The notes under the pieces are model-generated. The model worked only from the letters and a program-made list of their open reading frames with translations, was not told the DNA's origin and did no database searches. A DNA stretch of 64,000 nt, taken from the NCBI GenBank assembly GCA_040755755.1, contig JBFLZW010000004.1, positions 1 to 64,000 of the forward strand, written 5' to 3'. The number at the start of each line of letters is the position of its first letter. The first letter of the stretch is position 1. This DNA comes from a bacterium (GTDB lineage: Bacteria > SZUA-182 > DTGQ01). Of this stretch, positions 7,611 through 37,412 are shown in pieces. The position numbers and the translations under genes are program-made.

Positions 7611-7649
7611 CCCCCAACGATTTTCCCTAGTAAACTATACCTTTGGTAC

Positions 7650-7678
7650 TTGACTTTATAGTGCCTGCCATATAAACT
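7650..7678 (+). promoter_or_regulatory. Possible promoter for the ffh operon
   Basis: TTGACT at 7650-7655 and TAAACT at 7673-7678 are 17 bases apart (TATAAA at 7671-7676 is an alternative -10). It lies about 55 bases before the ffh start and directly before a nested inverted repeat. Confidence 0.5.
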
Positions 7679-7710
7679 AATTGTATAAAAATTATACAAA
7701 AGTGCAGGCA
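7662..7710. promoter_or_regulatory. Nested inverted repeat upstream of ffh
   Basis: Inner arms TTGTATAA (7681-7688) and TTATACAA (7692-7699) are perfect, separated by AAA. Outer arms TGCCTGC (7662-7668) and GCAGGCA (7704-7710) are also perfect. The element sits between the putative promoter and the ffh ribosome binding site, so it could be an operator or a leader hairpin. There is no T-run, so a terminator is unlikely. Confidence 0.5.
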
Positions 7711-7731
7711 AGATATCAATAAGGATATTCA

Positions 7732-9075: not shown

Positions 9076-9080
9076 ATTAT

Positions 9081-9323
9081 TTGGCGCTTCGGATACGGTT
9101 AACGAGACTGGGAGCGAAAAAGCGGCCATTCTACAGGATCGTGGTAATAGATTCCAGAAGATCACGCAGTGGCGAATATCTGGATCTGATTGGAAACTAT
9201 GACCCGCTGAAAGCCCCGGCAGAGATCAGAATCAATACGGAAAAAGCCGTCTCTTGGATGCAGAAAGGCGCAATACCATCTGACACCGTTAAACAGCTAT
9301 TTAGCAGTCAGGGAGTAATCTAG
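9081..9323 (+). CDS. rpsP: 30S ribosomal protein S16
   Basis: An 80-residue S16 protein of the small ribosomal subunit (MALRIRLTRLGAKKRPFYRI, then RSGEYLDLIGNYDPL). The start is set at TTG 9081: the strong AGGAGG at 9067-9072 lies eight bases upstream and this N-terminus matches the family. The GTG at 9072 overlaps that ribosome binding site and is unlikely. The site also covers the last bases of ffh, so the two are coupled. Confidence 0.96.
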   Translation: MALRIRLTRLGAKKRPFYRIVVIDSRRSRSGEYLDLIGNYDPLKAPAEIRINTEKAVSWMQKGAIPSDTVKQLFSSQGVI

Positions 9324-9379
9324 TTGTATTGTAATCTCCAACTCAAACAGGGAGTTATTAAATTACGGAGGTAGGGAAA

Positions 9380-9616
9380 ATGGGCATGAAGGAATTAATC
9401 GAAGATATCGCTAGAGCACTGGTTGATTATCCTGAAGAAGTTAGTGTGACTGAGGTTGATGGCGAACGGACTACGGTGCTGGAGTTACGGGTTGCCAAGA
9501 CTGATCTGGGCAAGGTAATCGGCAAACAGGGGCAGACTGCACGGGCCATGCGGACGGTTTTAAGTGCAGCGGCCACCAAGATCGGCAAAAGGGCGGTACT
9601 GGAGATACTTGAATAG
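9380..9616 (+). CDS. khpA: KH-domain RNA-binding protein KhpA (YlqC)
   Basis: A 78-residue single KH domain protein. The RNA-contacting GxxG loop is GKQG within [19 protein letters not shown]. The position between rpsP and rimM is the classical one for this family, which in other bacteria partners with KhpB in RNA binding. GGAGG lies about nine bases before ATG 9380. Confidence 0.95.
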
Positions 9617-9653
9617 TATCCAGGGAAAACCTCACGCATTTGTGCAGGATATA

Positions 9654-10172
9654 ATGGACCTCGTTCAGATCGGTAAAATCATCGGCACCCATGGTAACAA
9701 GGGGGAGGTAAAGGTTTATCTGCTGACGGATTTCCCGGAAAGATTTCAGTCTCTGAAAGAGGTCTTTTTAGTAACTCCTTCGGGGCGAAGAAGCCTGGCT
9801 GTTGAAAGTGTCCGGTTCCATAAGAGCTATGTAATTCTGAAGCCGCAGGAGTCTCACACCATGAGCGATGCGGAGAAACTCAAAGGGGCTGCGATCTGCA
9901 TACCCGAAGAGGAAGTTTATCCTCTGGGAGAGGATGAATACTACTGCTTCCAGCTCATAGGCATGGAGGTCTACACGGAGGAAGGATTATTTTTAGGAGT
10001 AATAGAGGATATCTTTCCGACAGGAAGTAACGATGTGTATGTAATTAAAGATGAACACAAGGAGTACCTTATCCCGGCAATCAAAGAGGTGGTTAAAGAG
10101 GTAAATCTGGAAAGAAGAAGAATTACCGTTCATCTTCTGAAAGGATTGTTGAATCCCGCTGATGCTCTTTGA
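9654..10172 (+). CDS. rimM: Ribosome maturation factor RimM
   Basis: A 172-residue 30S maturation factor that binds S19 and supports 16S rRNA processing. The N-terminal RimM domain starts LVQIGKIIGTHGNKGEVKVY; the C-terminal PRC-barrel part contains GEDEYYCFQLIGMEVYTEEG and TGSNDVYVIK...YLIPAI. ATG 9654 is preferred because AGGATATA precedes it and the family starts here; the open frame extends back to 9564 but overlaps khpA. The stop overlaps trmD by 11 bases. Confidence 0.95.
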   Translation: MDLVQIGKIIGTHGNKGEVKVYLLTDFPERFQSLKEVFLVTPSGRRSLAVESVRFHKSYVILKPQESHTMSDAEKLKGAAICIPEEEVYPLGEDEYYCFQLIGMEVYTEEGLFLGVIEDIFPTGSNDVYVIKDEHKEYLIPAIKEVVKEVNLERRRITVHLLKGLLNPADAL

Positions 10173-10881
10173 TATCATTACCATATTTCCGGAAATGTTT
10201 CCGGGGATCATTCAGCAGAGCATTATCAAGAGAGCCCAGGAGAAGGGCCTGGTAAGCATTCGGATCCATGACCTTCGGGATTTTACTGAAGACAGGCACC
10301 GAAAAGTCGATGATTCTCCGTATGGAGGCGGCCCGGGAATGGTGTTCAAGGCCGAACCCCTCTGTCGAGCCATCAGGGCAGTGATGCAGGAGAGCTCGCT
10401 GGTCAAGAGGGTTTATCTGTCTCCGGAGGGCACCCTTTTTTGTCATCACATGGCTAAGGAGTTGGCTCAGGAAAGTCATCTGGTACTTGTATGCGGCCAT
10501 TATGAAGGAATCGATCAAAGAGTCCGGGATACCCTGATTGATGAAGAGATTTCGATTGGAGATTATGTCTTAAGCGGCGGGGAGCTGCCGGCACTGGTTG
10601 TGCTGGATGCTGTAGTCAGACTGATCCCTGGAGTATTGGGTTCTGAGGAGTCTTTGCAGGTTGAATCTTTCTCGGATAATCTCCTTGATTATCCTCAGTA
10701 TACACGACCGAGAATCTTTGAAGGCAGGGAAGTTCCCGATGTTTTGCTCTCCGGACATCATGAAAGAATCCGGAAGTGGAGGCGCAGGCAATCTCTCTTA
10801 CGAACCGCCCAGAGGAGGCCGGACCTTTTCAGGAAGGCAGTTTTGACTACTGAGGATATCGAATTATTGAAGGATCTTTGA
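10162..10881 (+). CDS. trmD: tRNA (guanine-N1)-methyltransferase TrmD
   Basis: A 239-residue SPOUT enzyme that makes m1G37 in tRNAs using S-adenosylmethionine. Signatures: FDIITIFPEMFPGI, DDSPYGGGPGMV, the knot region GHYEGIDQRV and IGDYVLSGGELPALVVLDAV, and YPQYTRP. ATG 10162 lies inside the end of rimM, so translation is coupled. Length is normal. Confidence 0.97.
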   Translation: MLFDIITIFPEMFPGIIQQSIIKRAQEKGLVSIRIHDLRDFTEDRHRKVDDSPYGGGPGMVFKAEPLCRAIRAVMQESSLVKRVYLSPEGTLFCHHMAKELAQESHLVLVCGHYEGIDQRVRDTLIDEEISIGDYVLSGGELPALVVLDAVVRLIPGVLGSEESLQVESFSDNLLDYPQYTRPRIFEGREVPDVLLSGHHERIRKWRRRQSLLRTAQRRPDLFRKAVLTTEDIELLKDL

Positions 10882-11453
10882 CCTTGGAACGATCACTGAT
10901 CTCTATCGGGCTCCTCCATTTCCCTGTTTATAACAAAAACAAGGAGGTCGTTACCACCTCAATAACTACCTCCAGTCTTCATGATATTTCGAGAACAGCC
11001 AGAACCTTTGGGGTTGAAGGTTTTTATATCATAACTCCGATCCAGGCACATAAGGAGCTGGTCAACCGACTGATCCAGCACTGGCAGACAGGCTATGGAG
11101 CCGATTACAACCCGACGCGCAAGGATGCCCTTGAAAACGTTATTGTCATGAGCAGCCTTGGAGAATGTCTTCGGAGCCTGAAAGAGAAGTACCAGAAAGA
11201 CCCTGTCACGGTTGTAACCTGCGCCCGGGCGCGCAGAAATGCAATCTCTTATCCGGATCTTCGTGAGAAGATACGGCGGGAGAGGCAATTATACTTCATT
11301 ATTTTCGGAACCGGCTGGGGTATTGAACAGAGCCTGATGGAAACCATGGACTTTACCATCGAACCAATCTATGGACAGGGAAGGTATAATCATCTTTCCG
11401 TAAGAGCTGCGGTAGCTATAATTCTGGATAGATTAACTAACGAAAACAGGTAA
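10878..11453 (+). CDS. SPOUT-type RNA methyltransferase (Methyltrn_RNA_4 family)
   Basis: A 191-residue protein whose N-terminus, IGLLHFPVYNKNKEVVTTSI, and C-terminal FGTGWGI plus QGRYNHLSVRAAVAIILDRL are characteristic of the SAM-dependent RNA methyltransferase family found between trmD and rplS in several anaerobic phyla. The target RNA is not established. No ATG is present. TTG 10878 overlaps the trmD stop, and TTG 10884 is an alternative with better spacing (nine bases) from AAGGA. Confidence 0.88.
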   Translation: MTLERSLISIGLLHFPVYNKNKEVVTTSITTSSLHDISRTARTFGVEGFYIITPIQAHKELVNRLIQHWQTGYGADYNPTRKDALENVIVMSSLGECLRSLKEKYQKDPVTVVTCARARRNAISYPDLREKIRRERQLYFIIFGTGWGIEQSLMETMDFTIEPIYGQGRYNHLSVRAAVAIILDRLTNENR

Positions 11454-11468
11454 AGAGGTAGAAGCGAC

Positions 11469-11819
11469 ATGAATAACATTTTGAACGCATTGGAGCAGGA
11501 ACAGCTTAAAAAAGATATTCCCGGTTTCGGGCCAGGTGATACGCTCAGGGTGCATCTGAAACTTATTGAAGGTGACCGGGAAAGAATTCAGGTCTTTGAA
11601 GGGGTAGTTATCCGCATTCGCCGGGGGAATAACCGGTCCACGTTCACCGTGCGGAAAATCTCGTACGGAGTGGGAGTTGAGAGAACCCTCCCCCTTCATT
11701 CTCCCATTATTGACAAAATCGAGGTTACGCGCAAGGGAAGGGTCCGCCGGGCAAAACTGTATTATATGCGGCAGCGTATAGGCAAGAGAGCCAGAATCAA
11801 GGAAAGAACTACGAGGTAA
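11469..11819 (+). CDS. rplS: 50S ribosomal protein L19
   Basis: A 116-residue L19 protein located at the interface of the ribosomal subunits. Diagnostic stretches are [51 protein letters not shown] and [13 protein letters not shown] precedes ATG 11469 by nine bases. It is followed at 12 bases by yraN; the rnhB gene often found between the two is absent. Confidence 0.97.
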
Positions 11820-11830
11820 GAAGTGGTTTA

Positions 11831-12199
11831 ATGGCAATAACTCACCGAGTACAACTGGGGAAACAAGGTGAACGGATGGCGGTTCAGCTCCTGAAATCGG
11901 AGCATCTCTCGATCCGTGAGCTGAATTTTCGCTGCTCTCTCGGAGAAATCGATATCATTGCCGAGCAGGAGGATGTCATTGTCTTCATCGAAGTCAAAAC
12001 CAGGAGCACTACAAATTATGGCTTGCCAGAAGAAGCGGTTGGTTACCCCAAGCAGCAGAAGCTTATCCAGGTGGCCATGCATTACCTTCAGAAGGAGCGA
12101 TTGGAAAATAGAAGCTGCCGCTTCGATGTGGTATCCATTATCATGAAGAACAACACAGTTGAGAAAATTGAACACATTATGAATGCTTTCTCAGCTTGA
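11831..12199 (+). CDS. yraN: UPF0102 family protein YraN
   Basis: A 122-residue predicted nuclease-fold protein. The family core is present: LGKQGERMAVQLL near the N-terminus, then SLGEIDIIAEQEDVIVFIEV with KTR, carrying the GEIDII-(x)-VFIEVK (D-ExK-like) active-site pattern. It is the last gene of the ffh operon. The role is unproven; DNA processing is usually suggested. Confidence 0.93.
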   Translation: MAITHRVQLGKQGERMAVQLLKSEHLSIRELNFRCSLGEIDIIAEQEDVIVFIEVKTRSTTNYGLPEEAVGYPKQQKLIQVAMHYLQKERLENRSCRFDVVSIIMKNNTVEKIEHIMNAFSA

Positions 12200-12638
12200 A
12201 GAAATTATGGAAGGTCAGAGGGAACTATCCTTTTGCATAAAAACAAAGTATGGCCAAAGGCAGTATCGGATTGTCAAGAAGGTTCGTGAGCAGTGATTTA
12301 TATCTCCAGGTTTAATCCCTCCCTCAAAGTAGTATTCGTAGTATTCGGCAAATTCTTCTGCTCAGTGAGTTTATTTTTCTGGCTTTATTAATCCAAAGGT
12401 ATTATATTATTATAATGGCATGTTTTGTGCTTTCCATTTCTCCTGGAAGGCCACAGATACCGGAGCATTCATCCGGCGTGGAAGGGTGAGAAAGGTTTTG
12501 GGGTATGCTCTGGGTGTTCAATTAATAAACATAATAAACAAAACAGCCCGAATCTGAATTTTTCATGTCTCTGACGGAATTGGTTATGTATTGTTAGAGT
12601 TATCTATTAACAACAGAATCACTTTGAAGGAGAGAGTG
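12200..12638. other. 440-base intergenic region
   Basis: No gene seen. A TATAAT at 12411-12416 has only a weak -35 (TTAATC) at 17 bases. The part nearest the next gene has short direct AATAAACA repeats (about 12520-12542). No clear terminator for the upstream operon was found. Confidence 0.5.
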
Positions 12639-14540
12639 ATGAAGGGTAAGCCTATATATTCCTTCTTCTGGATTTGCCTGGCGGTCGTACTGGTTGTTCA
12701 GCTTTCTGGAGTAAAAGTTTTTGCACAGGAGATTTATCCTCAGGTACTTGAGTCCGACCCTGAGTCAATGCAAACTGATGTGCCTGTATCAAGTGCCATA
12801 ACCATCTTGTTCACTGTCCCCATGGACCCTGTTACTACGGCTGAGGCCTTTCATTTCTACATTGAAGGAACCGACGAGGTCTTTAACAACCTCAAGGATT
12901 CCGGTTACCTCGATATAGAGAATGCCACTTTGACCTTTACTCCTCTCCATGATCTGGAGCCTGGAACGACATACTGGATTAAGATTAAATCAACGGCTAC
13001 CGACATGAATCAGCCGCGGAACTCCCTGGATGGGAATAATAACGGCGTTGGTGAAGAGGGAGAGGATGATGACTGGAAGATTATGTTCACCACCGCAGCC
13101 ATAGAAGTTCCTCCTCCTGCCCAGGACCACTGGAGTCAAGTCTATGGTCCAGGCCAGGGCATTGACGGAAAGATTTGCTGTATGGCCGTTGACAGCCGGG
13201 ATAATCTCTGGGCAGCAACCAATGATGAAGATGGCATTTACTACTTTGATGGGAATGCCTGGCAGAATAAAACATCCTCTCTCGATGACTCTCAAATGAT
13301 AGATAACTTCCTCTGTATGGCTGCTGACGGGCAGGACCGCCTGTGGGTAGCACTCGATACATCGCGAGAGACCAGTCTCGATGCTCCCCGGTTAGCCAGA
13401 TGGGAGAACAATACCTGGCAAGAATTTTCTGCCGCAAACCTCAGCCTCCTCGAGGACGAGGTCATTCTCAAAATTGCCTTCGATTCCAGTGATAACGTCT
13501 GGATGATTACCAGTGGAAGTAAGGTCATTAACTACAACAATAGCAATAGGCAGGTAATCACCTATGCGAAAAACGATCTTTCCGAAGGTGCACTGGTGAT
13601 CGACAGGGAGGATAATGTCTGGGTTGGATCGGCGGTTAACGGTGCCTTCAAACTGCCGAAGGGAAAGGATACCTGGGAAGTTTACAGTTACAATGACGCC
13701 CCTGGACCTTATTCTACGAAAGGCATGGGGATCGATCCTGCCGGGCATATTTGGATCGGAACAACGATCGGGCTCCTGAAATTGGATCCATCCATTGGAA
13801 AACCCGGCGTATGGACACGCTATACCACTAGTAATACCGGTGCGGGATTGCCGAGTAACGATATAACCTCCCTGGCTGTTGATCCGAAGAGCGGCGCAAT
13901 ATGGGCAGGGACTTCGTCCGGTCTTGGGAAGTTTGACGGCAAGACGCAATGGACGAATTTTGCAGTGACCAATATCAGTGAGCTATCAGACCAAAAAATC
14001 AATACCCTGGCCCTCAACCCGCGGGGTGAAGTCTGGCTTGGAACAGATGACGGGCTGATGAAACGGGATGATATCAGACCCTATATCGTAGTGGAGGAGA
14101 GCTCTCCCACGAATGAGACCCTGGTAGATCAAACGGTGAAAATCCGAATCGTCTTTAGTGAGCCGATGAGGCAAGATGCGGCTACAAACGCTTTTACCCT
14201 GATGAATGCGGTCAAGGCAACAACCGTTGCAGGAGAATTTTCCTGGACTGATGAAAGGACTCTGGAGTTTACTCCGGAGAAGGGTGTTCTGGATGCCGAT
14301 CAGACCTATAGAATCATCATGGCTACTTCAGTCCTTCCAAAAGATCTGGCAGGCAACTCTCTTTCCACCACAGGGTATGAGGTTACTTTCTCCACACAAG
14401 GTAATCAGCAAAGTAATACTCGATTTTCACCTGCGTATGATGATGACGTTAACCTGAGCGGCAGCGGATGCTTTATCGATTCGGTGAGCCATAAACCGTG
14501 GTCCTGGCTCAGGCGGGTTGTGGAACTTCTCTGGTCATAA
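12639..14540 (+). CDS. Secreted Big_5 / two-component-type propeller protein with CFI C-terminus
   Basis: About 633 residues. ATG 12639 is chosen because AAGGAG lies six bases upstream and a clean signal peptide follows (hydrophobic FFWICLAVVLVVQLSGVKVF, cleavage near FAQE). Residues about 35-155 form a Big_5-like domain (DVPVSSAITILFTVPMDPVT ... FTPLHDLEPGTTYWIKI). Then come about six beta-propeller blades of the kind found in two-component sensor propellers (VDSRDNLWAATNDEDGIYYF, DREDNVWVGSAVNGAFKL, IDPAGHIWIGTTIGLLKL). A second Big_5-like domain follows (SPTNETLVDQTVKIRIVFSE). The end is GSGCFIDS plus a short basic tail with no membrane segment. No kinase domain is present, so the propeller is probably structural or ligand-binding. 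Confidence 0.8.
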   Translation: MKGKPIYSFFWICLAVVLVVQLSGVKVFAQEIYPQVLESDPESMQTDVPVSSAITILFTVPMDPVTTAEAFHFYIEGTDEVFNNLKDSGYLDIENATLTFTPLHDLEPGTTYWIKIKSTATDMNQPRNSLDGNNNGVGEEGEDDDWKIMFTTAAIEVPPPAQDHWSQVYGPGQGIDGKICCMAVDSRDNLWAATNDEDGIYYFDGNAWQNKTSSLDDSQMIDNFLCMAADGQDRLWVALDTSRETSLDAPRLARWENNTWQEFSAANLSLLEDEVILKIAFDSSDNVWMITSGSKVINYNNSNRQVITYAKNDLSEGALVIDREDNVWVGSAVNGAFKLPKGKDTWEVYSYNDAPGPYSTKGMGIDPAGHIWIGTTIGLLKLDPSIGKPGVWTRYTTSNTGAGLPSNDITSLAVDPKSGAIWAGTSSGLGKFDGKTQWTNFAVTNISELSDQKINTLALNPRGEVWLGTDDGLMKRDDIRPYIVVEESSPTNETLVDQTVKIRIVFSEPMRQDAATNAFTLMNAVKATTVAGEFSWTDERTLEFTPEKGVLDADQTYRIIMATSVLPKDLAGNSLSTTGYEVTFSTQGNQQSNTRFSPAYDDDVNLSGSGCFIDSVSHKPWSWLRRVVELLWS

Positions 14541-22161: not shown

Positions 22162-23412
22162 CTAAACTTCAGGTGAGATGAACCAATTCCGTAAGATGTC
22201 GCTTTTTTTATTCTGGTTATGAGAAGTCTTATAGTTCATCAGTTCTTCTTTATTGGAGAGTAATCGCCAGGCTGTTTTAATATACAAAAATATATTACTT
22301 TTTAAATACAACGGGTAATAGAGCAAAGCTTTTTTAGAGCTTAAATCCAGGTCATATATTCCCGATACAGCTCTCAACGAGGTAAACAACCCTTGTTGGA
22401 AGATGGCTATCTTGGCTTTCATGTGCGGTGCTACCCATAATCGAGCTATGATATTCGGTCGTGGTACAGCATTACTAAAAAGCTGCTCTATCGCCAGGTC
22501 AATGATCTGGGGATCAAAATTATCCGGCTTTAAATCTTCCAAGACCGCCGGGGGTATGGTTACCTGGAGCACTTCCTCTGCAAGACGAAGTGTGAGGTAA
22601 ACACATTTCTCGCTTTTCCACTCATGGGTACGAAGCGTTACCTGTTCCCAGTCAATCTCATCATGATAATACCACAATGTTTGGGAAATGTCATACAGGT
22701 GTTTGAGTCCACCGGAAAATATATGGGCCGCAGTATGAAGACATTGATGTAAAATCAAATCTTCAGGACAGAGAATGAGCGCTTCAACACCGGCTATGGT
22801 ACATGGCCGGGCCCTTTTCCAAAACCCTTCGATATCAATTGTGTAACCATGAATAAAATTGCTGATATTCCAATGCAGCTCCAATATTTCTTTATCCGGT
22901 CCTTCGAATGGAACTAAATGTTTTTGGATTTTGCACTGCTTTTCAATGCTGAGTTGTATGTTTTGCTTATAACCTATTTCAAGCAATTTTTCCCCGGCCC
23001 TGGCCAGGTCCCTTTTCCTGATTAAAAGATCGATATCGTGAAAAAAACGCAAAGCCTTATCCTGATAGACAGTTGCAGTCAAGGCAGCACCCTTGAGAAC
23101 GATAGGTTCGATTCCATCCTCTTTAAGAACCTTCAATATGTTGCCAAGCTCATGATAGAGATGCTCATTCCGAAAGGCGTTCAGATAATATCCAGCTTTT
23201 AACGTCTGGAGCACACTTTGGGGAATGCTGCCTCCGATTCCCTTCAGCTTATGATACAAGAGCGGAATACCTGCATTCAACTGGGCTTTCATCATGACTT
23301 CGTTCCAGTTGAAACCGGAATTGGGAATACTCTTGACTTTGTCATATATCCCGGTATCTGTTTCCCCTCTCATGCAAGAGAGCAAAAATTCACATTCAGG
23401 AGATAGATTCAT
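22162..23412 (-). CDS. Nucleotidyltransferase family protein (NTP_transf_5 type)
   Basis: A 416-residue protein of the uncharacterised nucleotidyltransferase family. The key region is IEPIVLKGAALTATVYQDKA followed by the metal-binding FFHDIDLLIRK (D-x-D). The rest is helical, including ELHWNISNFIH and LIHQCLHTAAHIFSGG-like segments common to this family. Such proteins recur next to HprK-like kinases and PqqD proteins in peptide-modification loci, which is the arrangement here. The substrate is unknown. It is the last gene of the minus-strand cluster, seven bases after the C25 protease. Confidence 0.82.
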   Translation of the reverse strand: MNLSPECEFLLSCMRGETDTGIYDKVKSIPNSGFNWNEVMMKAQLNAGIPLLYHKLKGIGGSIPQSVLQTLKAGYYLNAFRNEHLYHELGNILKVLKEDGIEPIVLKGAALTATVYQDKALRFFHDIDLLIRKRDLARAGEKLLEIGYKQNIQLSIEKQCKIQKHLVPFEGPDKEILELHWNISNFIHGYTIDIEGFWKRARPCTIAGVEALILCPEDLILHQCLHTAAHIFSGGLKHLYDISQTLWYYHDEIDWEQVTLRTHEWKSEKCVYLTLRLAEEVLQVTIPPAVLEDLKPDNFDPQIIDLAIEQLFSNAVPRPNIIARLWVAPHMKAKIAIFQQGLFTSLRAVSGIYDLDLSSKKALLYYPLYLKSNIFLYIKTAWRLLSNKEELMNYKTSHNQNKKSDILRNWFISPEV

Positions 23413-26891: not shown

Positions 26892-28085
26892 CTAATTTTC
26901 AGACACTAAATTCTTGAGTAATCCTGCCATATCTTCCAGTCTGCCCGCAGTTAGCCGGTAGCACTTCGCATTCTCCAGAAGAGAGCTTATGAGCAGCGTC
27001 ATTGAGGCTATGCCGGCCCCATTATCTTTGAAAATAGATGACTCCTGCCCGCCCCGAAAGCTCCTTAAAAGCTCGAACAGCGCTCTTGATTTACGTATTT
27101 CAATCAGGTGAGGTTCCTGGGAGAAGTCAGCTTTCCGTTTCTTCCTTTCTTTGGTAATATCAAAGAGGGCAACTTGATGGTGATAACAAAGATTTTTTAT
27201 TTCGGGCAATAAACAGGAGCCGGTTTTAACCGTGAGTTGTATAACAGGCGATGCCCCTCCTTCTATTTTATTAATCTCTGTTATTCCGGGAAAATCCTGA
27301 AGCTTTGAGATCATTTTTTCATCAAATCGGTCTACAGCAAGATATAAGGATGTATAATCCTGCCTTGCAGGATGGGGCGGATTTGCCCTATCCTCAGATC
27401 CCTCTTCAGCGAATGAGGACAAAATGATCACATATTTTGGCAGGCAGGGATCACTGAGCTGTATGCCGGGAACATCTGATACATGCATAACAGTTTTTCC
27501 TTCACCAGAAATCATGGGTAAGGAATCGAGATTGGACAGGTTAAAATCCTTGAATAACTGGAGGGCGGTTGTTCGAACTCCCAGGGTTCTTGGAAAGGGG
27601 TACAAGAGATGATTTTCCCGATGAATACAGGTAATTTCATCGGTAAAGAATTTAAAGCCCTGCCTGATTAATTCTATAGCCAAGGTGCTCTTCCCCTGCC
27701 CGGAGGAACCCAGGATGATGACACCCTGTCCCTGCCATGATACAGCCGCTGCATGGAAGAGAAGATGAGATTTTATCTTAGCCATGACAGAATTGATGAT
27801 GAGGTTATGGGCATAACCCGGCAGCATATGAGCCTTTGGGCAAGGATAAATCTTATCGTCTGCCAGGATAAACGGCTGTTCAGAAAGAGCCGGTTCATCA
27901 ATCACATAATATCTTCCGATGTGCCCACCTCCCGTTGATGTCTTCACCAGGAAGTTTGCGTACATCTTTTCAAAGTAGATCAAGGCTGAAGATTTATTCG
28001 TGGAAATGGTAAAGGTGTGATCCAGAAAATGAAAAGTATAACTCAAATTTGCCACGGTATTGATGGATGATAGATCAATTACACG
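26892..28085 (-). CDS. HprK-like P-loop kinase of a peptide-modification locus
   Basis: About 397 residues from ATG 28085, which overlaps the radical SAM stop by 11 bases; the frame stays open to 28154. A P-loop GSSGQGKST is at residues 127-135, preceded by the LLFHAAAVSWQGQGVI block and followed by FFTDEITCI, the layout of HPr kinase/phosphorylase-related proteins. It lacks the rest of classical HprK and no HPr gene is nearby. Such HprK-related proteins are known next to PqqD and nucleotidyltransferase proteins. The substrate is not known and could be a small molecule or the peptide. Confidence 0.82.
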   Translation of the reverse strand, partial: RVIDLSSINTVANLSYTFHFLDHTFTISTNKSSALIYFEKMYANFLVKTSTGGGHIGRYYVIDEPALSEQPFILADDKIYPCPKAHMLPGYAHNLIINSVMAKIKSHLLFHAAAVSWQGQGVIILGSSGQGKSTLAIELIRQGFKFFTDEITCIHRENHLLYPFPRTLGVRTTALQLFKDFNLSNLDSLPMISGEGKTVMHVSDVPGIQLSDPCLPKYVIILSSFAEEGSEDRANPPHPARQDYTSLYLAVDRFDEKMISKLQDFPGITEINKIEGGASPVIQLTVKTGSCLLPEIKNLCYHHQVALFDITKERKKRKADFSQEPHLIEIRKSRALFELLRSFRGGQESSIFKDNGAGIASMTLLISSLLENAKCYRLTAGRLEDMAGLLKNLVSEN

Positions 28086-29487
28086 CATTTTCCCGTATAT
28101 TTTCCCATTTATGACCTGATCCTGATGAGCTGCACTTTTCGGCAGCCAGGCCAAAAATTGTCTGCGGATACATCTTCTGTCTTAATTCACAAAGATCGTC
28201 AACCTCATGGAATGTGCCTTTTGATTGATAAACTGTGCCCGCGCATCCCGCTTGACAGAAGTGGTGCCATGCACAGGCCCTGCATCGAGAGATATCATCC
28301 TTACGCCTGCGGCACACCTCTTGTATTTCTGCCATCTTTTCTGACTCAACAGCTTGCTGCAAGCTCATCTTCTGGATTTTACCCAATCTAAATTCCGGCT
28401 CCATGAGCAAAGGACAGGGATAAAGCCATCCCTGTGCGTCTAGGGCAAGTATTTCCCCAATCTGACACCACATGGTTTGGCCTGCCGAAAAATAAAGCAA
28501 GAAGCCGTGAAACCCGGGGCTGATGTGAAACCCAGGGAACAGAGAGGGGACCTTCTGATACATATAGGTATAAAATTTTGTGTAATCCCGCGTGGACAGG
28601 GCTAACTTATCCCAGTGCACCCTGGCTGAACCCATGGCCTGGATCGGGACAAATCGTAAAGAGGATATCCCTTTCTCGGAGGCCAGGGCGAGAATATCAG
28701 GGATATACTCAATGTTATTCCTGCTGATCGTTACACAAAAAGCGATTCTTTTTCCGGCACCCTTGCCGATGAGAAGGTCTATAGCCTGTAATGTCTTACC
28801 AAAAGCACCCTTACCCCGTATGAAATCATGGATAAACTCCCCGGGGCCGTCAAGACTGATCTGTAGACTTACACCAAGATCGGCCAAAACACCGGCCAGG
28901 TAATCATCTATTAAGGTTGCATTGGTATTCAAACCGGTTTTGACTCTTGGGGCTGCATAAGAAAGTATCTTGATGCAGTCCTCTCGCATGAGAGGCTCTC
29001 CCCCGCCAAGAGTTAAAAAACAATTCCCGGATTCTTGGGCTTCGTCTATGATTCTGAAAATCTGCTCTGTACTCAGGTAATCTCTCTTTTCTCTGCCATC
29101 TGTTACCGCACAATGTCTGCATCGGAGATTACACCGTTCCGTGATATTCAAATTTATTTTCCGGAGGCCAGGGGAGAGCTTTCCAAAAAGATTGTTCTCT
29201 CTGTGAGTTGGATCAGAAGCCGATAAAAAGCCATCTTGAGCCAACTGCCTGATAAATGTTTTTACATCCGAACATGAAGAATCAAAGGATATGCCATACT
29301 GCCGGCTGATTAGCTGGGCAATTTCCTTTACACTCGTGTGACCATCGCACAGGGATACAATACAATATCCCGCTTCATTGATTACTCTCCATACGGCTCG
29401 ATCCGCGTGCACCAGGATTGCGCGGTTTTTATCACCTGAAGCGATACATACCCCTTTATAGTGAGGTTTGAAATCTTCAGTCATCAT
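28075..29487 (-). CDS. PqqD-fused radical SAM/SPASM peptide maturase
   Basis: 470 residues. Residues 1-95 form a PqqD-like leader-recognition domain (RAVWRVINEAGYCIVSLCDG, SVKEIAQLISRQYGI). The radical SAM core starts NLNITERCNLRCRHCAVTD with the 4Fe-4S cysteines C119, C123 and C126, followed by TLGGGEPLMRED, TNATLID and QISLDGPGEF. A C-terminal SPASM region with auxiliary-cluster cysteines follows (MWCQIGEILALDAQGWLYPC, CRACAWHHFCQAGC, DDLCELRQ). Enzymes with this architecture install cross-links such as thioethers on ribosomal peptides. AAAAGGAAA precedes ATG 29487; the next codon is also ATG. A terminator separates it from the precursor gene upstream. Confidence 0.92.
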   Translation of the reverse strand: MMTEDFKPHYKGVCIASGDKNRAILVHADRAVWRVINEAGYCIVSLCDGHTSVKEIAQLISRQYGISFDSSCSDVKTFIRQLAQDGFLSASDPTHRENNLFGKLSPGLRKINLNITERCNLRCRHCAVTDGREKRDYLSTEQIFRIIDEAQESGNCFLTLGGGEPLMREDCIKILSYAAPRVKTGLNTNATLIDDYLAGVLADLGVSLQISLDGPGEFIHDFIRGKGAFGKTLQAIDLLIGKGAGKRIAFCVTISRNNIEYIPDILALASEKGISSLRFVPIQAMGSARVHWDKLALSTRDYTKFYTYMYQKVPSLFPGFHISPGFHGFLLYFSAGQTMWCQIGEILALDAQGWLYPCPLLMEPEFRLGKIQKMSLQQAVESEKMAEIQEVCRRRKDDISRCRACAWHHFCQAGCAGTVYQSKGTFHEVDDLCELRQKMYPQTIFGLAAEKCSSSGSGHKWENIRENACN

Positions 29488-29513: not shown

Positions 29514-29575
29514 AAAAAAAGGGGGAAGAGAATTTTAGCCGTTTTTCTTAATGGCTAAAAACTCTTCATCCCCCT
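29514..29575 (-). terminator. Intrinsic terminator/attenuator between precursor and maturase genes
   Basis: On the minus strand GGGGG-TGAAGAGT-TTTTAGCC pairs with GGCTAAAA-TTCTCTT-CCCCC; the innermost arms TTTTAGCC/GGCTAAAA and the outer G5/C5 arms match exactly. Seven T follow at once (A-run at 29514-29520 on the plus strand). It lies 35 bases after the precursor stop and 27 bases before the radical SAM start. Partial termination here would make precursor mRNA more abundant than enzyme mRNA. Confidence 0.85.
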
Positions 29576-29609
29576 CGAAGGTTTTTCTATAAAAATGAAT
29601 GCTTTGAAA

Positions 29610-29774
29610 TCAACAACCAACTATATTGCCAAACGGACTGCATGCCTGAATAGGCCCAAGCTCTTCGGCCAGGTCCCGTTCAGAAAAGCTGATCATGGCG
29701 GGTGGCTCGTACCTCACCACCGGTTTTGTTTCATTGGCAAGCTCTTTTTCCTCTTTCTTGGTATTCATATCCAT
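29610..29774 (-). CDS. Candidate RiPP precursor peptide (54 aa, C-terminal Cys pair)
   Basis: A 54-residue open frame on the minus strand, too short for usual gene calling. GGAGGG lies six bases before ATG 29774 (a second ATG is two codons later). The leader is charged (NTKKEEKELANE) and contains KPVVRYEPPAMISFSE, with a YxxP motif like those bound by leader-recognition domains in other RiPP systems. The C-terminal part reads LAEELGPIQ and then ACSPFGNIVGC, with Cys45 and Cys54 (the last residue). It lies 41 bases after the secreted 274-residue protein gene and directly upstream of a terminator and a PqqD-radical SAM gene. A thioether or other cross-link on the CSPFGNIVGC core is a reasonable expectation but unproven. 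Confidence 0.8.
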   Translation of the reverse strand: MDMNTKKEEKELANETKPVVRYEPPAMISFSERDLAEELGPIQACSPFGNIVGC

Positions 29775-29815
29775 ATTTTTCCCTCCACTTTCTCAATGGC
29801 TTATATCAATCATAA

Positions 29816-30640
29816 TTACCAGTACCAATACGGCCATAGCTGCGAATAGTACCAATACGGCCATAGCTGTGGTGCTGAATACCCCCGATACCAGTCTATC
29901 GAGTATATTGGCCACAATGCCGGAATACTAGCTGAGACGGGCCCATGCACGGTACTGACGCCCCTTGTATCTATATCCTCCAGCTTGTAATAATAAATAA
30001 CTCCGGCTACGGCCGTAACATCATTAAAAGAATACTCTCTACTTACCGCGCCACCCTGGGCCCTGATGATTGCAGGGTTGATCATGATGTACTCGCCATC
30101 TTCCGATTCACTGCGCAAGATGTTAAAGCCTGCATTATCGAGCTCACATCCAGTGCTCCAGGAAATGGTGATCTGGTTATTTTGGGGAGTTGCAGTAAAT
30201 GTATCTAATTCAATGGCATCTGGGTGCTGCAGTATTGTAATACTGGCCTTGGCAACATCTGAGCTTGTGTCTGGACTTGATCCGCAGATGGCCATCAGGG
30301 TGACATCGAATGTTTTACCTATGTCACTACAATCAAAGGTGAGGCCGTGATCCTCATCCTTTAATTTAACGTACAGCCTGACGGGACCGCAATGGCCGGA
30401 GTTTTCGTGGGCGGAGCAATGTGAATTTCTGTCCACTACCTCAGGAGTTAGAGTAAACTCCTTACAATTATCAATGTATATCACTATCGGACTGTTCTTG
30501 GCCAAAGCATGTGCCTTACATACTGGATCGGCTTCTGCCCCTCGGACATAAGCCATCGATACTGCCAATATAACCCCTGTTACCACCAACCCTAAAACCC
30601 AGATTGATTTCCCTGGATAAAAGTTGAGAAATTTTTTCAT
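29816..30640 (-). CDS. Secreted Cys-rich/Fn3-like protein with WPYWY tail repeats
   Basis: 274 residues; AAGGAGG lies seven bases before ATG 30640. A signal or anchor segment (SIWVLGLVVTGVILAVSMAY) is followed by a Cys-rich part (KAHALAK, DNCKEF, NSHCSAHENSGHCGP, AICGS) and then a fibronectin-III-like domain. Characteristic Fn3 stretches are ITISWSTGCELDNAGFNILR and VIYYYKLEDIDTRG. The C-terminus is unusual: QLWPYWYYS is followed by QLWPYWYW, a 27-base tandem duplication (29821-29869), with a degenerate earlier unit ALWPIYSIDWYRGYSAP. It is the first large gene of the peptide locus. The aromatic tail could be a second modification substrate or a binding site, which is speculative. Confidence 0.72.
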   Translation of the reverse strand: MKKFLNFYPGKSIWVLGLVVTGVILAVSMAYVRGAEADPVCKAHALAKNSPIVIYIDNCKEFTLTPEVVDRNSHCSAHENSGHCGPVRLYVKLKDEDHGLTFDCSDIGKTFDVTLMAICGSSPDTSSDVAKASITILQHPDAIELDTFTATPQNNQITISWSTGCELDNAGFNILRSESEDGEYIMINPAIIRAQGGAVSREYSFNDVTAVAGVIYYYKLEDIDTRGVSTVHGPVSASIPALWPIYSIDWYRGYSAPQLWPYWYYSQLWPYWYW

Positions 30641-32855: not shown

Positions 32856-34699
32856 GAAGAATTACGAGCCGAGAGGAATTTGACCGGATAAAAAAAGAGC
32901 TGGAAGAGCTATTTAACCAGAACAAAAAGAGGATCATCGTTTGCAAAGGCACCGGATGCAGTGCCTTTGGCAGTGCCAAAGTTATTGAAGCCTTTGAGCA
33001 TGAGATAGAAAAAGCGGGGCTATCGGACATGGTGGAGGTCAAAAAGACCGGCTGTCATGGTTTTTGTGAAAAAGGCCCCATTGTAGCCATACTGCCTGAG
33101 GATATCTTTTATCACCAGGTATCGGTGGAAGATGTCCCTGATATCATTGAGCTGACCATTAAAAAGGGTGAGCTTATCGATAAATTATTATACAAGGATC
33201 CAAGAACAAAACAGAAATATGTCTATACCCACGACGTTCCCTTTTACGCCAAGCAAAAGAGGATAGTTTTTCACCACAACGGTCTCATTGATCCTACCAG
33301 GATTACGGACTACATCGGTGTTGGAGGATACGAAGCCTTCGTAAAAGCTATCTTTGAGATGACTCCTGAGCAGGTTATCGAGGAAGTAAAAAAGTCAGGC
33401 CTTCGCGGCCGGGGTGGCGGGGGATTTTTAACCGGCCTCAAGTGGGAATTTTGCTCGAAAGCCAAGGGAGAGCCCAAGTATTTAATCTGTAATGCTGACG
33501 AAGGAGATCCGGGTGCTTTTATGGACCGGAGCCTGCTGGAAGGCAATCCTCACCTGGTGCTCGAAGGGATGCTGATTGCTGGCTATGCTATCGGCTCACA
33601 CCACGGCTATATTTATGTCAGGGCTGAATACCCTCTGGCTATTGCCAATCTCAAGACAGCTATAGCCCAAAGCAAAGAACTTGGGATTTTGGGGCAGAAT
33701 ATCCTGGGGACAGACTTCTCTTTTGATGTCCTGATAAAAGAAGGGGCAGGGGCTTTTGTCTGCGGTGAAGAGACGGCCCTGATGGCCTCTATCGAAGGGA
33801 AACGGGGCATGCCCCGGCCCAGACCGCCATTTCCAGCCCATAAGGGATTATGGGGTAAGCCGTCGAATATCAATAATGTCGAAACCTTTGCCAATGTTCC
33901 TTTTATTATTACTAAAGGTTCTCAGTGGTATGCGGAAATCGGCACCGAGAAGAGCAAGGGGACGAAAATTTTCGCCCTGGCAGGGAAGGTCAATAATACG
34001 GGACTGGTGGAAGTTCCGATGGGCATTACCTTGCGGGAGGTCGTTTTCGATATCGGCGGCGGCCCCCCGAAGGGGAGGAAATTCAAGGCAGTACAGCTTG
34101 GCGGTCCATCGGGCGGCTGTATCGCCGAGGACAACCTCGATGCTCCCATCGATTATGACTCTCTGATCAGCCTGGGAGCCATTATGGGTTCGGGCGGTAT
34201 GGTGGTCATGGATACGGCAAACTGCATGGTTGATGTAGCCCGGTTTTTCCTGGAGTTCATCCAAAGCGAGTCCTGTGGAAAATGTGTGCCCTGCCGTGTT
34301 GGAACCAAAAGGATGCTCGAGATCGTCACCCGAATTACCGAGGGCAGGGGGGAGGAATCGGATCTGGAATTACTCAAGGAGCTTGCGGAAGGGATAAAAG
34401 CTACTGCCCTTTGTGGACTTGGGCAGACGGCACCCAATCCGGTTTTGAGTACCATGCGGTATTTTGCGGATGAATACCGGGCTCATATTCTCGAAAAGCG
34501 GTGCCCGGCTCACGTTTGCAGTGCACTTATCAAGTTTGAAATCGCTCAGGATCTTTGCAAAAAATGCGGCATTTGTAAAAAAATGTGTCCGGCAGGTGCG
34601 GTCAGCTGGATGCCGAAAACGGTAGCGGCCATTGACAAAAATCTCTGCATTCAATGCAAAACCTGTATCGAAAACTGTCCTGCCCAGGCAATACAGTAA
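32852..34699 (+). CDS. NuoF/HndC-like NADH-binding flavoprotein with extra FeS domains
   Basis: 615 residues. Residues 1-120 form a 2Fe-2S thioredoxin-like domain (VCKGTGCSAFGS, GCHGFCEKGP). The FMN/NADH core follows with GLRGRGGGGFLTGLKWEF, NADEGDPGAFMDRSLLEGNP and GAGAFVCGEETALMASIEG. A 4Fe-4S site is at SCGKCVPCRVGTKRM with a distal CGLG. Two C-terminal ferredoxin-type clusters lie in CKKCGICKKMCPAG and CIQCKTCIENCPAQ. This multi-domain form occurs in NAD-linked hydrogenases and formate dehydrogenases, including electron-bifurcating ones. It would pass electrons between NAD(H) and FdhA. It is coupled to the upstream gene and lies 16 bases before fdhA. Confidence 0.94.
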   Translation: MRRITSREEFDRIKKELEELFNQNKKRIIVCKGTGCSAFGSAKVIEAFEHEIEKAGLSDMVEVKKTGCHGFCEKGPIVAILPEDIFYHQVSVEDVPDIIELTIKKGELIDKLLYKDPRTKQKYVYTHDVPFYAKQKRIVFHHNGLIDPTRITDYIGVGGYEAFVKAIFEMTPEQVIEEVKKSGLRGRGGGGFLTGLKWEFCSKAKGEPKYLICNADEGDPGAFMDRSLLEGNPHLVLEGMLIAGYAIGSHHGYIYVRAEYPLAIANLKTAIAQSKELGILGQNILGTDFSFDVLIKEGAGAFVCGEETALMASIEGKRGMPRPRPPFPAHKGLWGKPSNINNVETFANVPFIITKGSQWYAEIGTEKSKGTKIFALAGKVNNTGLVEVPMGITLREVVFDIGGGPPKGRKFKAVQLGGPSGGCIAEDNLDAPIDYDSLISLGAIMGSGGMVVMDTANCMVDVARFFLEFIQSESCGKCVPCRVGTKRMLEIVTRITEGRGEESDLELLKELAEGIKATALCGLGQTAPNPVLSTMRYFADEYRAHILEKRCPAHVCSALIKFEIAQDLCKKCGICKKMCPAGAVSWMPKTVAAIDKNLCIQCKTCIENCPAQAIQ

Positions 34700-34715
34700 C
34701 ATAAGGAAACAGCAC

Positions 34716-37412
34716 ATGGAAGAAAAAAAAATATACCTGTCCATCAACGGCAAAGAAGTTGCCTCCGGTCCTTCCCAGACCATTCTGGAAGTTGCCAGAG
34801 AGAATACTATCTTTATTCCCACCCTGTGTGACTGCCGGGACCTGAGCCCATTCGGCGCCTGCCGGCTCTGCCTGGTGGAAGTGGCAGGGCTGCCCAAGCT
34901 CGTTCCGGCCTGCTCTACTATTGTCGCGCCGGGAATGAAAATCAGGACCGAATCGGAAAAGATCGATAAATATCGAAAGCTGATTGTTGAAATGCTCCTC
35001 TCCGATCATAAGCCGGATTGTATGTTTTGTGAAAAATCCGGTGACTGCCTGCTGCAGGATCTGGCCTATCAATACGGTTTAAAAGACAGCCGGCTGGCAG
35101 GGGAGCAAAGAGCAGGCATAATCGATGATTCCAACCCGTTTATCGAGCGGGACAACAGCAAATGCATTCTCTGCGGACGGTGCGTCCGTGTCTGTGACGA
35201 GGTGCAGGGAGTTTCAGCTATCGGTTTTGTCGGGCGGGGATTTCAGACCCGGATCGGTACTCCTTTTGACCGGAAATTAAACTGTGAGTTTTGTGGTCAG
35301 TGTATCGCCTCCTGTCCCGTGGGTGCCCTGACGAATAAGCCTTCACGGCAGAGAGGAAGGAAATGGCAGACCAAATGGGTTAAAACTGTCTGTCCTTACT
35401 GTGGATGCGGCTGCAATCTGACCCTTCATATCAAGGACAATAAGATCGTCAGCCTTCATTCAGACAGCACCACGGTAAACGAGGGCTATCTGTGCAGCAA
35501 GGGCAGGTTTGGCTATGAATTTGTCCACCATCCCGATCGCTTGCAGTTTCCTCTCATCAGAAAGAACGGCCAGCTCGTCCGGGCAGGATGGGATGAGGCC
35601 CTGAATCTGGTGGCCACAAAATTTCAGGACATTAAAAGCCAGCATGGAAACAGGAGCCTGGCAGGCTTAAGCTCGGCCAAGTGCACCAACGAAGAAAATT
35701 ATCTCTTTCAGAAATTTATCAGGGCGGTCCTTGGCACCAATAATGTCGATCATTGCGCCCGGCTCTGACACGCTTCTACCGTGGCTGGTCTAGCCACATC
35801 ATTCGGCAGCGGAGCAATGACCAATTCAATCGCCGAGATCGGTCAGGCCAAGGTGATTCTGGTGATCGGTTCCAATACAACCGAAGCCCATCCCATCGTC
35901 GGCCTTCAGGTGAAAAAAGCGGTCAGAAAGAATGGCGGCAAACTGATCGTGGCTGACCCACGGCCTATTCCCCTGACCCGGATAGCCGATATCTGGCTGC
36001 AGCTGCGGCCGGGAACAAACGTGGCCCTGCTCAACGGGATGATGAAGGTGATTATCGATGAAGGGCTTGCCGATCAGCAATTCATTGCCGAGCGTACCGA
36101 AGGCTACGAGGAATTCCAGAAGACGATCGGCCATTATGACCTGGACAGGGTTTCGCAGATAACCGGCGTTCCCGCTTCCCTGATCCGGGACGCTGCCCGC
36201 ATCTATGCACAGGCTGAAAGCTCATCCATACTCTACGCTATGGGGGTCACCCAGCACAGCTCCGGCACCGATCAGGTTATTTCCATTGCCAATCTGGCCA
36301 TGTTGACCGGCAATGTAGGCAAAGAAAATGCCGGGGTCAATCCGCTCAGGGGGCAGAATAATGTCCAGGGTGCCTGCGACATGGGATGCCTGCCCAATGT
36401 CCTGCCGGGCTATCAGAATATCTCCGATCCTCAGATTCTGGGTAAGTTTGAAGAAAAATGGGGTGTATCGTTATCCAATAAACCGGGCCTGACAGTTACC
36501 GAGATATTTCATGGAGCCCTGAGCGGTGAGATCAAAGGACTTTACATCATGGGTGAAAACCCGATGCTGAGCGACCCCGATCTTCACAAGGTGGAGAAAG
36601 CGCTCCATGCTCTCGATTTTCTGGTAGTCCAGGATATCTTTCTGACTGAAACCGCCAAACTGGCGGATGTTGTTTTACCGGCAGTAAGCTTTGCCGAAAA
36701 GGAGGGTACGGTAACCAATACCGAACGAAGGGTCCAGAAGATGAATAAGGCCGTGCAGACATCCGGAGAGGGGATGGAGGATTGGAAAATCATCAGTGAG
36801 CTGGCCGCCCGGATGGGTTATCCCCTGGGCTACCGCTGCGCTGAGGAGATTTTCCAGGAAATAGCCGACCTGACTCCAAGCTATGGAGGGATGACCTACC
36901 AGAGGATAGAGCAATCGGGAGGCCTCCAGTGGCCCTGCCCCAGTATCCAGCATCCGGGAACAAAGTTCCTGCACCATCGCCGCTTTGCCAGGGGGCTGGG
37001 CAAGTTCAAGCCGGTGGAATACACACCTGCGGCTGAGCTGGCTGATGCTGACTATCCTTTTACCCTGACCACGGGAAGGAGGCTGTTTCACTATCATACG
37101 GGGTCGATGTCCCGGCGGGTAGCTCCCCTGCACGAAATTTATCCGGAAGGGTACCTGGAAATCAGTGAGCAGGATGCCCAGGCTATCAGTATTACCTCCA
37201 ATGATGAGGTTTTAGTAAAGTCCAGGAGGGGAGAGGTGCGGGTGAAAGCCCTGATCACTGACAGGCTGCCTGCAGGAGTGGTGTTTCTTCCCTTCCATTT
37301 TCATGAGTCCCCGGCAAATGCTTTGACCAATTCAGCTATCGATCCTGTAGCTAAGATTCCGGAATTGAAGGTCTGTGCGGTAAAGATTGAAAGGCTTGCC
37401 AGGGGAGATTGA
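34716..37412 (+). CDS. fdhA: Formate dehydrogenase alpha subunit, selenocysteine-containing
   Basis: 898 residues when the in-frame TGA at 35766-35768 is read as selenocysteine (Sec351). The codon sits in [25 protein letters not shown], exactly where formate dehydrogenases carry Sec or Cys, and the frame continues unbroken to 37412. The N-terminus is a NuoG-like 2Fe-2S domain (CDCRDLSPFGACRLC) with a His-Cys3 cluster (HKPDCMFCEKSGDC) and 4Fe-4S sites (CILCGRCVRVC, CEFCGQCIASC). The bis-MGD catalytic domain begins with CPYCGCGCNL. ATG 34716 follows AAGGAAA; the frame is open further upstream but overlaps the flavoprotein gene. With the two upstream subunits this is an NAD(P)-linked, soluble formate dehydrogenase. 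Standard gene calling would split it in two. Confidence 0.95.
35766..35812 (+). promoter_or_regulatory. Bacterial SECIS element directing Sec insertion at UGA
   Basis: Directly after the UGA, GTGGCT (35781-35786) pairs with AGCCAC (35792-35797) around the loop GGTCT. The GGTC apical loop and its distance from the UGA match the SelB-binding hairpin known from E. coli formate dehydrogenase genes. The organism must carry selA, selB, selC and selD elsewhere. Confidence 0.88.

What the first reader, a model, noticed from the sequence alone, without database searches (positions are those of the whole stretch)
29610..29774. Overlooked 54-residue RiPP precursor beside a PqqD-radical SAM-SPASM enzyme
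Seen: GGAGGG plus ATG 29774 opens a 54-codon frame with charged leader, a YEPP (YxxP-like) motif, GPIQ, and a core ACSPFGNIVGC ending on Cys. It sits immediately upstream of the maturase gene. Known: PqqD-like domains bind RiPP leaders, and SPASM radical SAM enzymes make thioethers or C-C bonds. Inferred: a two-cysteine macrocycle or sactionine/ranthionine-type product. I know of no named product with this core.
Basis: partly seen in the sequence, partly recalled or inferred. Interest (0 to 1): 0.92.

Follow-up and report, generated by a model that had tools for sequence, protein, structure and literature searches.

The report
Modified-peptide system paired with secreted proteins
A tiny overlooked gene makes the starting peptide for a conserved but undescribed bacterial pathway in which a radical enzyme and a kinase probably modify the peptide, and in many bacteria that peptide is encoded right beside secreted proteins sharing one C-terminal domain, hinting at a new way of processing or anchoring surface proteins.

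Summary
In detail: 29610-29774(-) is a 54-codon ORF with a good ribosome-binding site, 122 bp upstream of a PqqD/radical-SAM/SPASM gene. It is a real gene family. A profile of it hits 11 of 386 genomes, the radical-SAM subfamily hits 11, and 10 genomes have both (Fisher p = 7e-18, not corrected for relatedness). Members occur in MAGs labelled Acidobacteriota, Sumerlaeota, Chloroflexi and unclassified. NCBIfam and Pfam have no match for the peptide.

Invariant are a Y..P leader and ONE cysteine, always with Ser/Thr one or two residues later; the second Cys is not conserved, so a two-Cys macrocycle cannot be the family rule. Partners recur: HPr-kinase-like protein, NTP_transf_5, PqqD, S26-like peptidase, PorU-like C25 peptidase, and secreted proteins with a C-terminal FN3-like domain. 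Of 35 peptide genes, 20 lie within 150 bp of such a gene; in one family all 13 do, although its single radical-SAM gene lies elsewhere. Of 11 genomes with C25, FN3 and this radical-SAM, 10 lack the type IX translocon SprA; 4 of 4 tested with C25 and FN3 but no radical-SAM have it.

Best reading: a RiPP-type maturation system serving FN3-domain secreted proteins, not a stand-alone bacteriocin. Chemistry and any covalent attachment are untested.

The parts
29610..29774 (-). 54-aa precursor peptide: charged N-terminus, leader Y22EPPAMISFSERDLAEELGPIQ, invariant Cys45 followed by Ser46, core CSPFGNIVGC
   Evidence: family alignment and conservation; genome survey
29781..29786 (-). ribosome-binding site GGAGGG, 6 nt before the ATG
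   Evidence: read directly from sequence
29514..29576 (-). hairpin followed by a U-run between peptide and radical SAM genes, terminator-like (would give more peptide than enzyme transcript; inference)
   Evidence: MFE -29.9 kcal/mol, z = -3.75, 0 of 200 shuffles as stable. The simple terminator scan did not list it; its loop exceeds that scan's 8-nt limit
28075..29487 (-). 470-aa radical SAM maturase: N-terminal PqqD-like leader-binding domain, CX3CX2C (C119, C123, C126), SPASM cysteines C341, C358, C402, C405, C411, C415, C433 invariant in 17 homologues
   Evidence: AlphaFold mean pLDDT 88.4; nearest solved fold CteB 5why/5wgg
26892..28154 (-). HPr-kinase-related protein (putative peptide kinase), H134 and K155 kept and an acidic pair (DE) in the position of the lasso-kinase DD
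   Evidence: motif described in PMC9266682
23419..26889 (-). secreted C25 peptidase, PorU/gingipain-like, with Propeptide_C25; H832 and C864 invariant in 7 homologues
   Evidence: best solved relative PorU 6za2
22162..23412 (-). NTP_transf_5 nucleotidyltransferase-like protein
   Evidence: PF14907, 7.6e-56
29816..30640 (-). 274-aa secreted protein with C-terminal FN3-like domain (about residues 140-240) and Trp/Tyr-rich tail, 41 bp upstream of the peptide gene
   Evidence: domain modelled at pLDDT about 85-98 by blocks, Foldseek hits FN3 domains

Best explanation
The peptide is the precursor of a RiPP-type maturation system. Its Y..P leader docks on the enzyme's PqqD-like domain (or on the separate PqqD protein of sister clusters). 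The SPASM radical SAM enzyme then modifies the core at or next to the invariant Cys, most likely by a thioether-type bond. The HPr-kinase-like protein probably phosphorylates the Ser/Thr that follows that Cys, and the NTP_transf_5 protein may extend the phosphate, as PsmK and PsmN do in the lasso peptide pseudomycoidin. The product most likely works with the secreted proteins that share the FN3-like C-terminal domain and with the PorU-like C25 peptidase, in bacteria that mostly lack the type IX translocon. Shown by sequence: the gene, its conservation, its co-occurrence with the enzyme, the gene partnerships, the retained catalytic residues, and SprA absence in the genomes tested. Inferred: that the peptide is modified at all, every chemical step, export, and the functional link to FN3-domain proteins. 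My confidence by layer: precursor of this enzyme about 0.85-0.9; linked in function to FN3-domain secreted proteins about 0.65-0.7; thioether chemistry about 0.45-0.5.
For: Peptide/radical SAM co-occurrence 10 of 11 and 10 of 11 in 386 genomes. Recurrent cluster PqqD-peptide-radical SAM-FN3-HprK-C25-NTP-S26 in several labelled phyla. 20 of 35 peptide genes within 150 bp of a same-strand FN3-like gene; in G042, G203 and G337 all 13 peptides are, with the one radical SAM gene elsewhere. FN3-domain proteins carry varied N-terminal modules (beta-helix, LamG, papain) on one shared C-terminal domain. 23 of 23 peptides have Ser/Thr at +1 or +2 of the invariant Cys; kinase H and K and C25 H and C are kept. 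Kinase plus nucleotidyltransferase pairing known from lasso peptides. SprA absent in 10 of 11 genomes with C25, FN3 and this radical SAM, present in 4 of 4 with C25 and FN3 only.
Against: No biochemistry. Sumerlaeota clusters mostly lack a nearby FN3-like gene. FN3-like proteins outnumber peptides in some genomes (25 against 1 in G050). FN3-like domains also occur in genomes without the system. No dedicated exporter was identified in the window's cluster and the peptide has no signal sequence. G004 has the enzyme, kinase, C25 and FN3 but no peptide was detected. G007 has a peptide without the enzyme and with only fragments of the FN3 gene, which looks like decay.
Confidence: 0.6

Rival explanations
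1. A conventional secreted RiPP (bacteriocin or signal) with a Cys-based thioether ring; the FN3-domain genes are merely convenient highly expressed neighbours.
For: Precursor-plus-maturase layout and leader motif; nearest fold is the SCIFF maturase CteB; hairpin that would make peptide transcript exceed enzyme transcript.
Against: No ABC exporter or immunity gene seen in the window's cluster; in one family 13 of 13 peptides are dispersed beside FN3-like genes and away from the maturase, unusual for a bacteriocin; near-identical cores repeated 5-6 times per genome.
Confidence: 0.22
2. A peptide-derived redox cofactor like PQQ or mycofactocin: the peptide is consumed to make a small molecule used by secreted enzymes.
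For: Top NCBIfam score of the enzyme is the mycofactocin maturase (147.5 bits against a cut-off of 265); four Sumerlaeota peptides end in VxY, which from memory resembles the MftA C-terminus.
Against: Well below the mycofactocin cut-off; peptides come in several copies per genome beside structural beta-helix and protease proteins, no dehydrogenase is associated in the clusters read, and the C-termini are not conserved outside Sumerlaeota.
Confidence: 0.08
3. The ORF is a chance frame or a regulatory leader of the maturase gene.
For: It is short, and a terminator-like hairpin follows it.
Against: Conserved at the amino-acid level across several labelled phyla with variable gene order and spacing, often not upstream of the maturase at all.
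Confidence: 0.02

Closest known systems
SCIFF/ranthipeptide maturase CteB and sactipeptide-type SPASM enzymes (SkfB, SuiB, TigE)
   Same: N-terminal leader-binding domain plus radical SAM plus SPASM; nearest solved folds
   Different: 15-21% identity in the structural alignments; precursor unrelated by profile; no equivalog cut-off reached; family-wide only one Cys invariant
Phosphorylated lasso peptides (paeninodin, pseudomycoidin)
   Same: HPr-kinase-like tailoring enzyme and nucleotidyltransferase beside a small precursor, PqqD-type leader binding, YxxP-type leader (the last from memory)
   Different: No lasso cyclase or B2 protease found in the window's cluster; radical SAM enzyme instead; conserved Ser/Thr sits after the Cys, not at the C-terminus
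HPr-rel-A system and SynChlorMet cassette (NCBIfam)
   Same: HprK-related kinase and PqqD with small peptide and radical SAM enzymes; the L038 PqqD passes TIGR04353 (40.3 against 35 bits)
   Different: Window kinase and enzymes are far below TIGR04352, TIGR04249 and TIGR04250 cut-offs
Type IX secretion sortase PorU and its cargo
   Same: C25 peptidase closest to PorU among solved structures; cargo-like proteins with a common C-terminal domain; in SprA-bearing G160 the FN3-domain protein has a T9SS type A sorting domain
   Different: No SprA in the window's genome; none of the 9 other FN3-domain proteins scanned has the sorting domain; C25 below the PorU cut-off (266 against 420)

Membership tests
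RiPP (general) | short precursor gene genetically linked to a leader-binding domain and modifying enzyme | tested here: met
RiPP (general) | post-translational modification of the precursor demonstrated | not testable with these tools
   needs mass spectrometry
Ranthipeptide/sactipeptide | SPASM radical SAM enzyme with CX3CX2C and auxiliary-cluster cysteines | tested here: met
   C119, C123, C126 and seven SPASM Cys invariant in 17 homologues
Ranthipeptide/sactipeptide | Cys-derived thioether crosslinks | not testable with these tools
   one invariant Cys is compatible
Ranthipeptide/sactipeptide | match to a known maturase model above cut-off | tested here: not met
   StsB 114.7 of 625, PapB 85.8 of 340, SCIFF 80 of 425
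Lasso peptide | Asn-synthetase-like cyclase and B2 protease in the cluster | tested here: not met
   no such protein among the window cluster ORFs
Lasso peptide tailoring kinase | His-Lys-Asp-Asp motif | tested here: inconclusive
   H and K invariant in 11 homologues; acidic pair is DE in the window, DD, DE, ED or EE in others
HPr-rel-A system | TIGR04352 kinase and TIGR04353 PqqD above cut-off | tested here: not met
   window kinase 63.5 of 200; only the L038 PqqD of a sister cluster passes TIGR04353
Mycofactocin | TIGR03962 maturase above cut-off | tested here: not met
   147.5 of 265 bits
Type IX secretion | SprA translocon in the genome | tested here: not met
   none in G000
Type IX secretion | PorU model above cut-off | tested here: not met
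   266 of 420 bits
Type IX secretion | cargo with T9SS C-terminal sorting domain | tested here: not met
   window FN3-like protein no match; only the G160 protein matches

The most novel reading that the evidence does not exclude
In SprA-less bacteria a genetically encoded, radical-SAM-matured and phosphorylated peptide takes the place of the type IX machinery's anchor: the PorU-like C25 enzyme removes or opens the C-terminus of FN3-domain secreted proteins and joins them to the modified peptide, or uses it as anchor or sorting tag. That would be a Gram-negative sortase system whose attached group is a RiPP.
Probability: 0.15. Interest if true: 0.93.

Novelty: new variant of a known kind. Interest (0 to 1): 0.72.

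Why it matters
It gives an unrecognised radical-SAM peptide family a defined precursor, a defined invariant residue and a full partner list, so its chemistry can be tested directly. If the link to FN3-domain proteins is right, a RiPP-type modification would serve protein sorting or anchoring rather than warfare or cofactor making, and it would offer an answer to what PorU-like peptidases do in bacteria without a type IX translocon.

Tried and rejected
Two-Cys macrocycle as family rule: rejected, 7 of 23 precursors have one Cys. Arg/Lys-specific leader cleavage by the C25 enzyme: no conserved Arg/Lys between the Y..P motif and the core. Known peptide family: no NCBIfam or Pfam match for the peptide. 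T9SS membership: SprA absent. A conserved C-terminal tail on FN3-domain proteins as a universal signal: only lineage-specific tails (Trp/Tyr-rich in the window's genus, often Arg-ended in G042/G203/G337), no common motif. Sigma-70 promoter scan: nothing found. Rfam: nothing in the window. Literature text search for core motifs: no paper. Caveats: SprA was tested in only 22 genomes, the C25-plus-FN3 genomes without the enzyme were chosen because they are rich in FN3, and several carriers are close relatives; collapsed by family p = 0.015.

Full report
Observation. It has GGAGGG six bases before the ATG and ends in a stop 122 bp before the radical SAM gene. The enzyme has PqqD, Radical_SAM and SPASM domains. 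On the other side, 41 bp away on the same strand, is a secreted 274-aa protein (29816-30640). Downstream the enzyme is followed tightly by an HPr-kinase-related protein, a C25 peptidase and an NTP_transf_5 protein. A stable hairpin with a U-run lies between peptide and enzyme (z = -3.75); the simple terminator scan did not list it, because its loop is longer than that scan allows. If it is a terminator it would let the peptide outnumber its maturase, as is common for RiPP precursors (general knowledge).

Conservation. The peptide has a paralogue in the same genome (G000:C34, 42% identity), beside a paralogous enzyme (52%), kinase (46%) and C25 peptidase (50%). A scan of named genomes with the enzyme alignment gave 16 loci in MAGs labelled Acidobacteriota, Sumerlaeota, Chloroflexi, Pseudomonadota or unclassified bacterium. 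A profile of 16 peptides matched 17 of 18 genomes searched for it. In a broad set of 386 genomes the 23-sequence peptide profile matched 11, the enzyme subfamily (E below 1e-120, with a clear gap to the next hits at 1e-67) matched 11, and 10 had both: Fisher p = 6.7e-18, treating genomes as independent. The exceptions are G004 (enzyme, kinase, C25, FN3; no peptide found) and G007 (peptide and broken FN3 gene, no enzyme, no C25), which looks like decay. Neither NCBIfam nor Pfam has a match for the peptide.

Anatomy of the peptide. Invariant across 23 members, apart from the start: Tyr22, Pro25 and Cys45. Ser or Thr follows the Cys at +1 in 19 and at +1 or +2 in all 23. The second Cys is present in 16 of 23. 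Core types are CSxFxxxxxC (window lineage), CS..PCPV..P, CTGFGGS..GC (G042 family) and CTSF.P (Sumerlaeota). A macrocycle between two Cys cannot therefore be the shared chemistry; a single Cys-based bond can.

Enzymes. The maturase keeps C119, C123, C126 and seven SPASM cysteines in all 17 homologues. Its AlphaFold model (mean pLDDT 88.4) shows an N-terminal three-strand, three-helix unit of PqqD type, and its nearest solved structures are CteB, SuiB, the anaerobic sulfatase maturase, SkfB and TigE. It reaches no NCBIfam cut-off; the best score is mycofactocin maturase at 147.5 of 265. The kinase-like protein keeps His134 and Lys155 with an acidic pair, close to the His-Lys-Asp-Asp motif of the lasso kinases that phosphorylate a precursor Ser (PMC9266682). 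In pseudomycoidin a nucleotidyltransferase adds hexose to that phosphate, so kinase plus NTP_transf_5 here suggests phosphorylation and extension; that is inference, and I did not test whether PsmN belongs to the same Pfam family. The C25 peptidase keeps its His832 and Cys864 in 7 homologues, and its closest solved relative is PorU (6za2).

Secreted partners. The neighbour's C-terminal domain folds like fibronectin type III though Pfam has no match. Related proteins carry beta-helix, laminin-G, papain or C25-propeptide modules in front of the same domain, as sorted cargo does. Of 35 peptide genes, 20 lie within 150 bp of such a gene on the same strand; in the G042/G203/G337 family all 13 do, while the only copies of the enzyme, kinase and S26-C25 pair read there sit in a separate cluster without a peptide. 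For G042 alone a rough chance estimate for five of five is 5e-16. Cargo and peptide spread around the genome, processing enzymes in one place: this is the layout of a sorting or anchoring system more than of a bacteriocin.

Type IX secretion. In type IX secretion PorU, a C25 enzyme, cuts the C-terminal domain and joins the cargo to a surface glycan through a peptide bond; without the glycan, cargo was found joined to peptides from the medium (PMC4560394). I tested the translocon SprA. It is absent from G000, G001, G003, G004, G008, G042, G050, G203, G211 and G337, all with enzyme, C25 and FN3 (G211 has only a 41-residue sub-threshold match), and present in G160. It is present in all four genomes tested that have C25 and FN3 but no enzyme (G015, G053, G078, G081). 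In G160 the FN3-domain protein ends in a T9SS type A sorting domain; none of the nine others scanned does. Fisher p = 0.004, or 0.015 when collapsed by family. The sample is small and was chosen for FN3-rich genomes, so this is a lead.

Verdict. The steps not shown are modification, phosphorylation, export and any attachment.

Noticed in passing
L016 (G000:C83:40000-58000), 6947-13830: A second, distantly related system in the same genome: NTP_transf_5, PqqD, radical SAM, peptide MEQKKTLSEKTEVKKAYEQPRIVSEEVFETLALACCKSNACLRYGLPRGLHGVS, a 696-aa secreted protein with repeated YQPWSS in its C-terminal tail, HprK-like protein, S26-like peptidase.
   Followed up: partly
29816-30640; L009 4331-5923; L126 4367-6163; L127 4045-6474: All four FN3-domain proteins of this genome end in a Trp/Tyr/Pro-rich tail (for example LWPYWYYSQLWPYWYW), seen otherwise only in the same genus. 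Function unknown.
   Followed up: partly
34632-37412: Formate dehydrogenase alpha subunit interrupted by an in-frame TGA at VDHCARL-U-HASTVAGL: a selenocysteine site, with a short hairpin bearing a GGUCU loop just downstream.
   Followed up: partly
L030, L034, L035, L037: Sumerlaeota precursors have an acidic C-terminal extension ending in VVY, VTY or VAY, absent elsewhere in the family.
   Followed up: no
L014 / L025 (G003:C259): A second precursor in G003 lies beside a maturase gene broken by stop codons, a decaying copy.
   Followed up: no
L032 3885-6388: Tandem duplication of peptide plus FN3-domain gene as a unit, which supports the pairing.
   Followed up: yes
L009 13496-16438 and L011 14568-17525: A conserved large secreted protein, subtilase (S8) by Pfam in L009, sits next to the C25 gene in two sister clusters but not in the window.
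   Followed up: no
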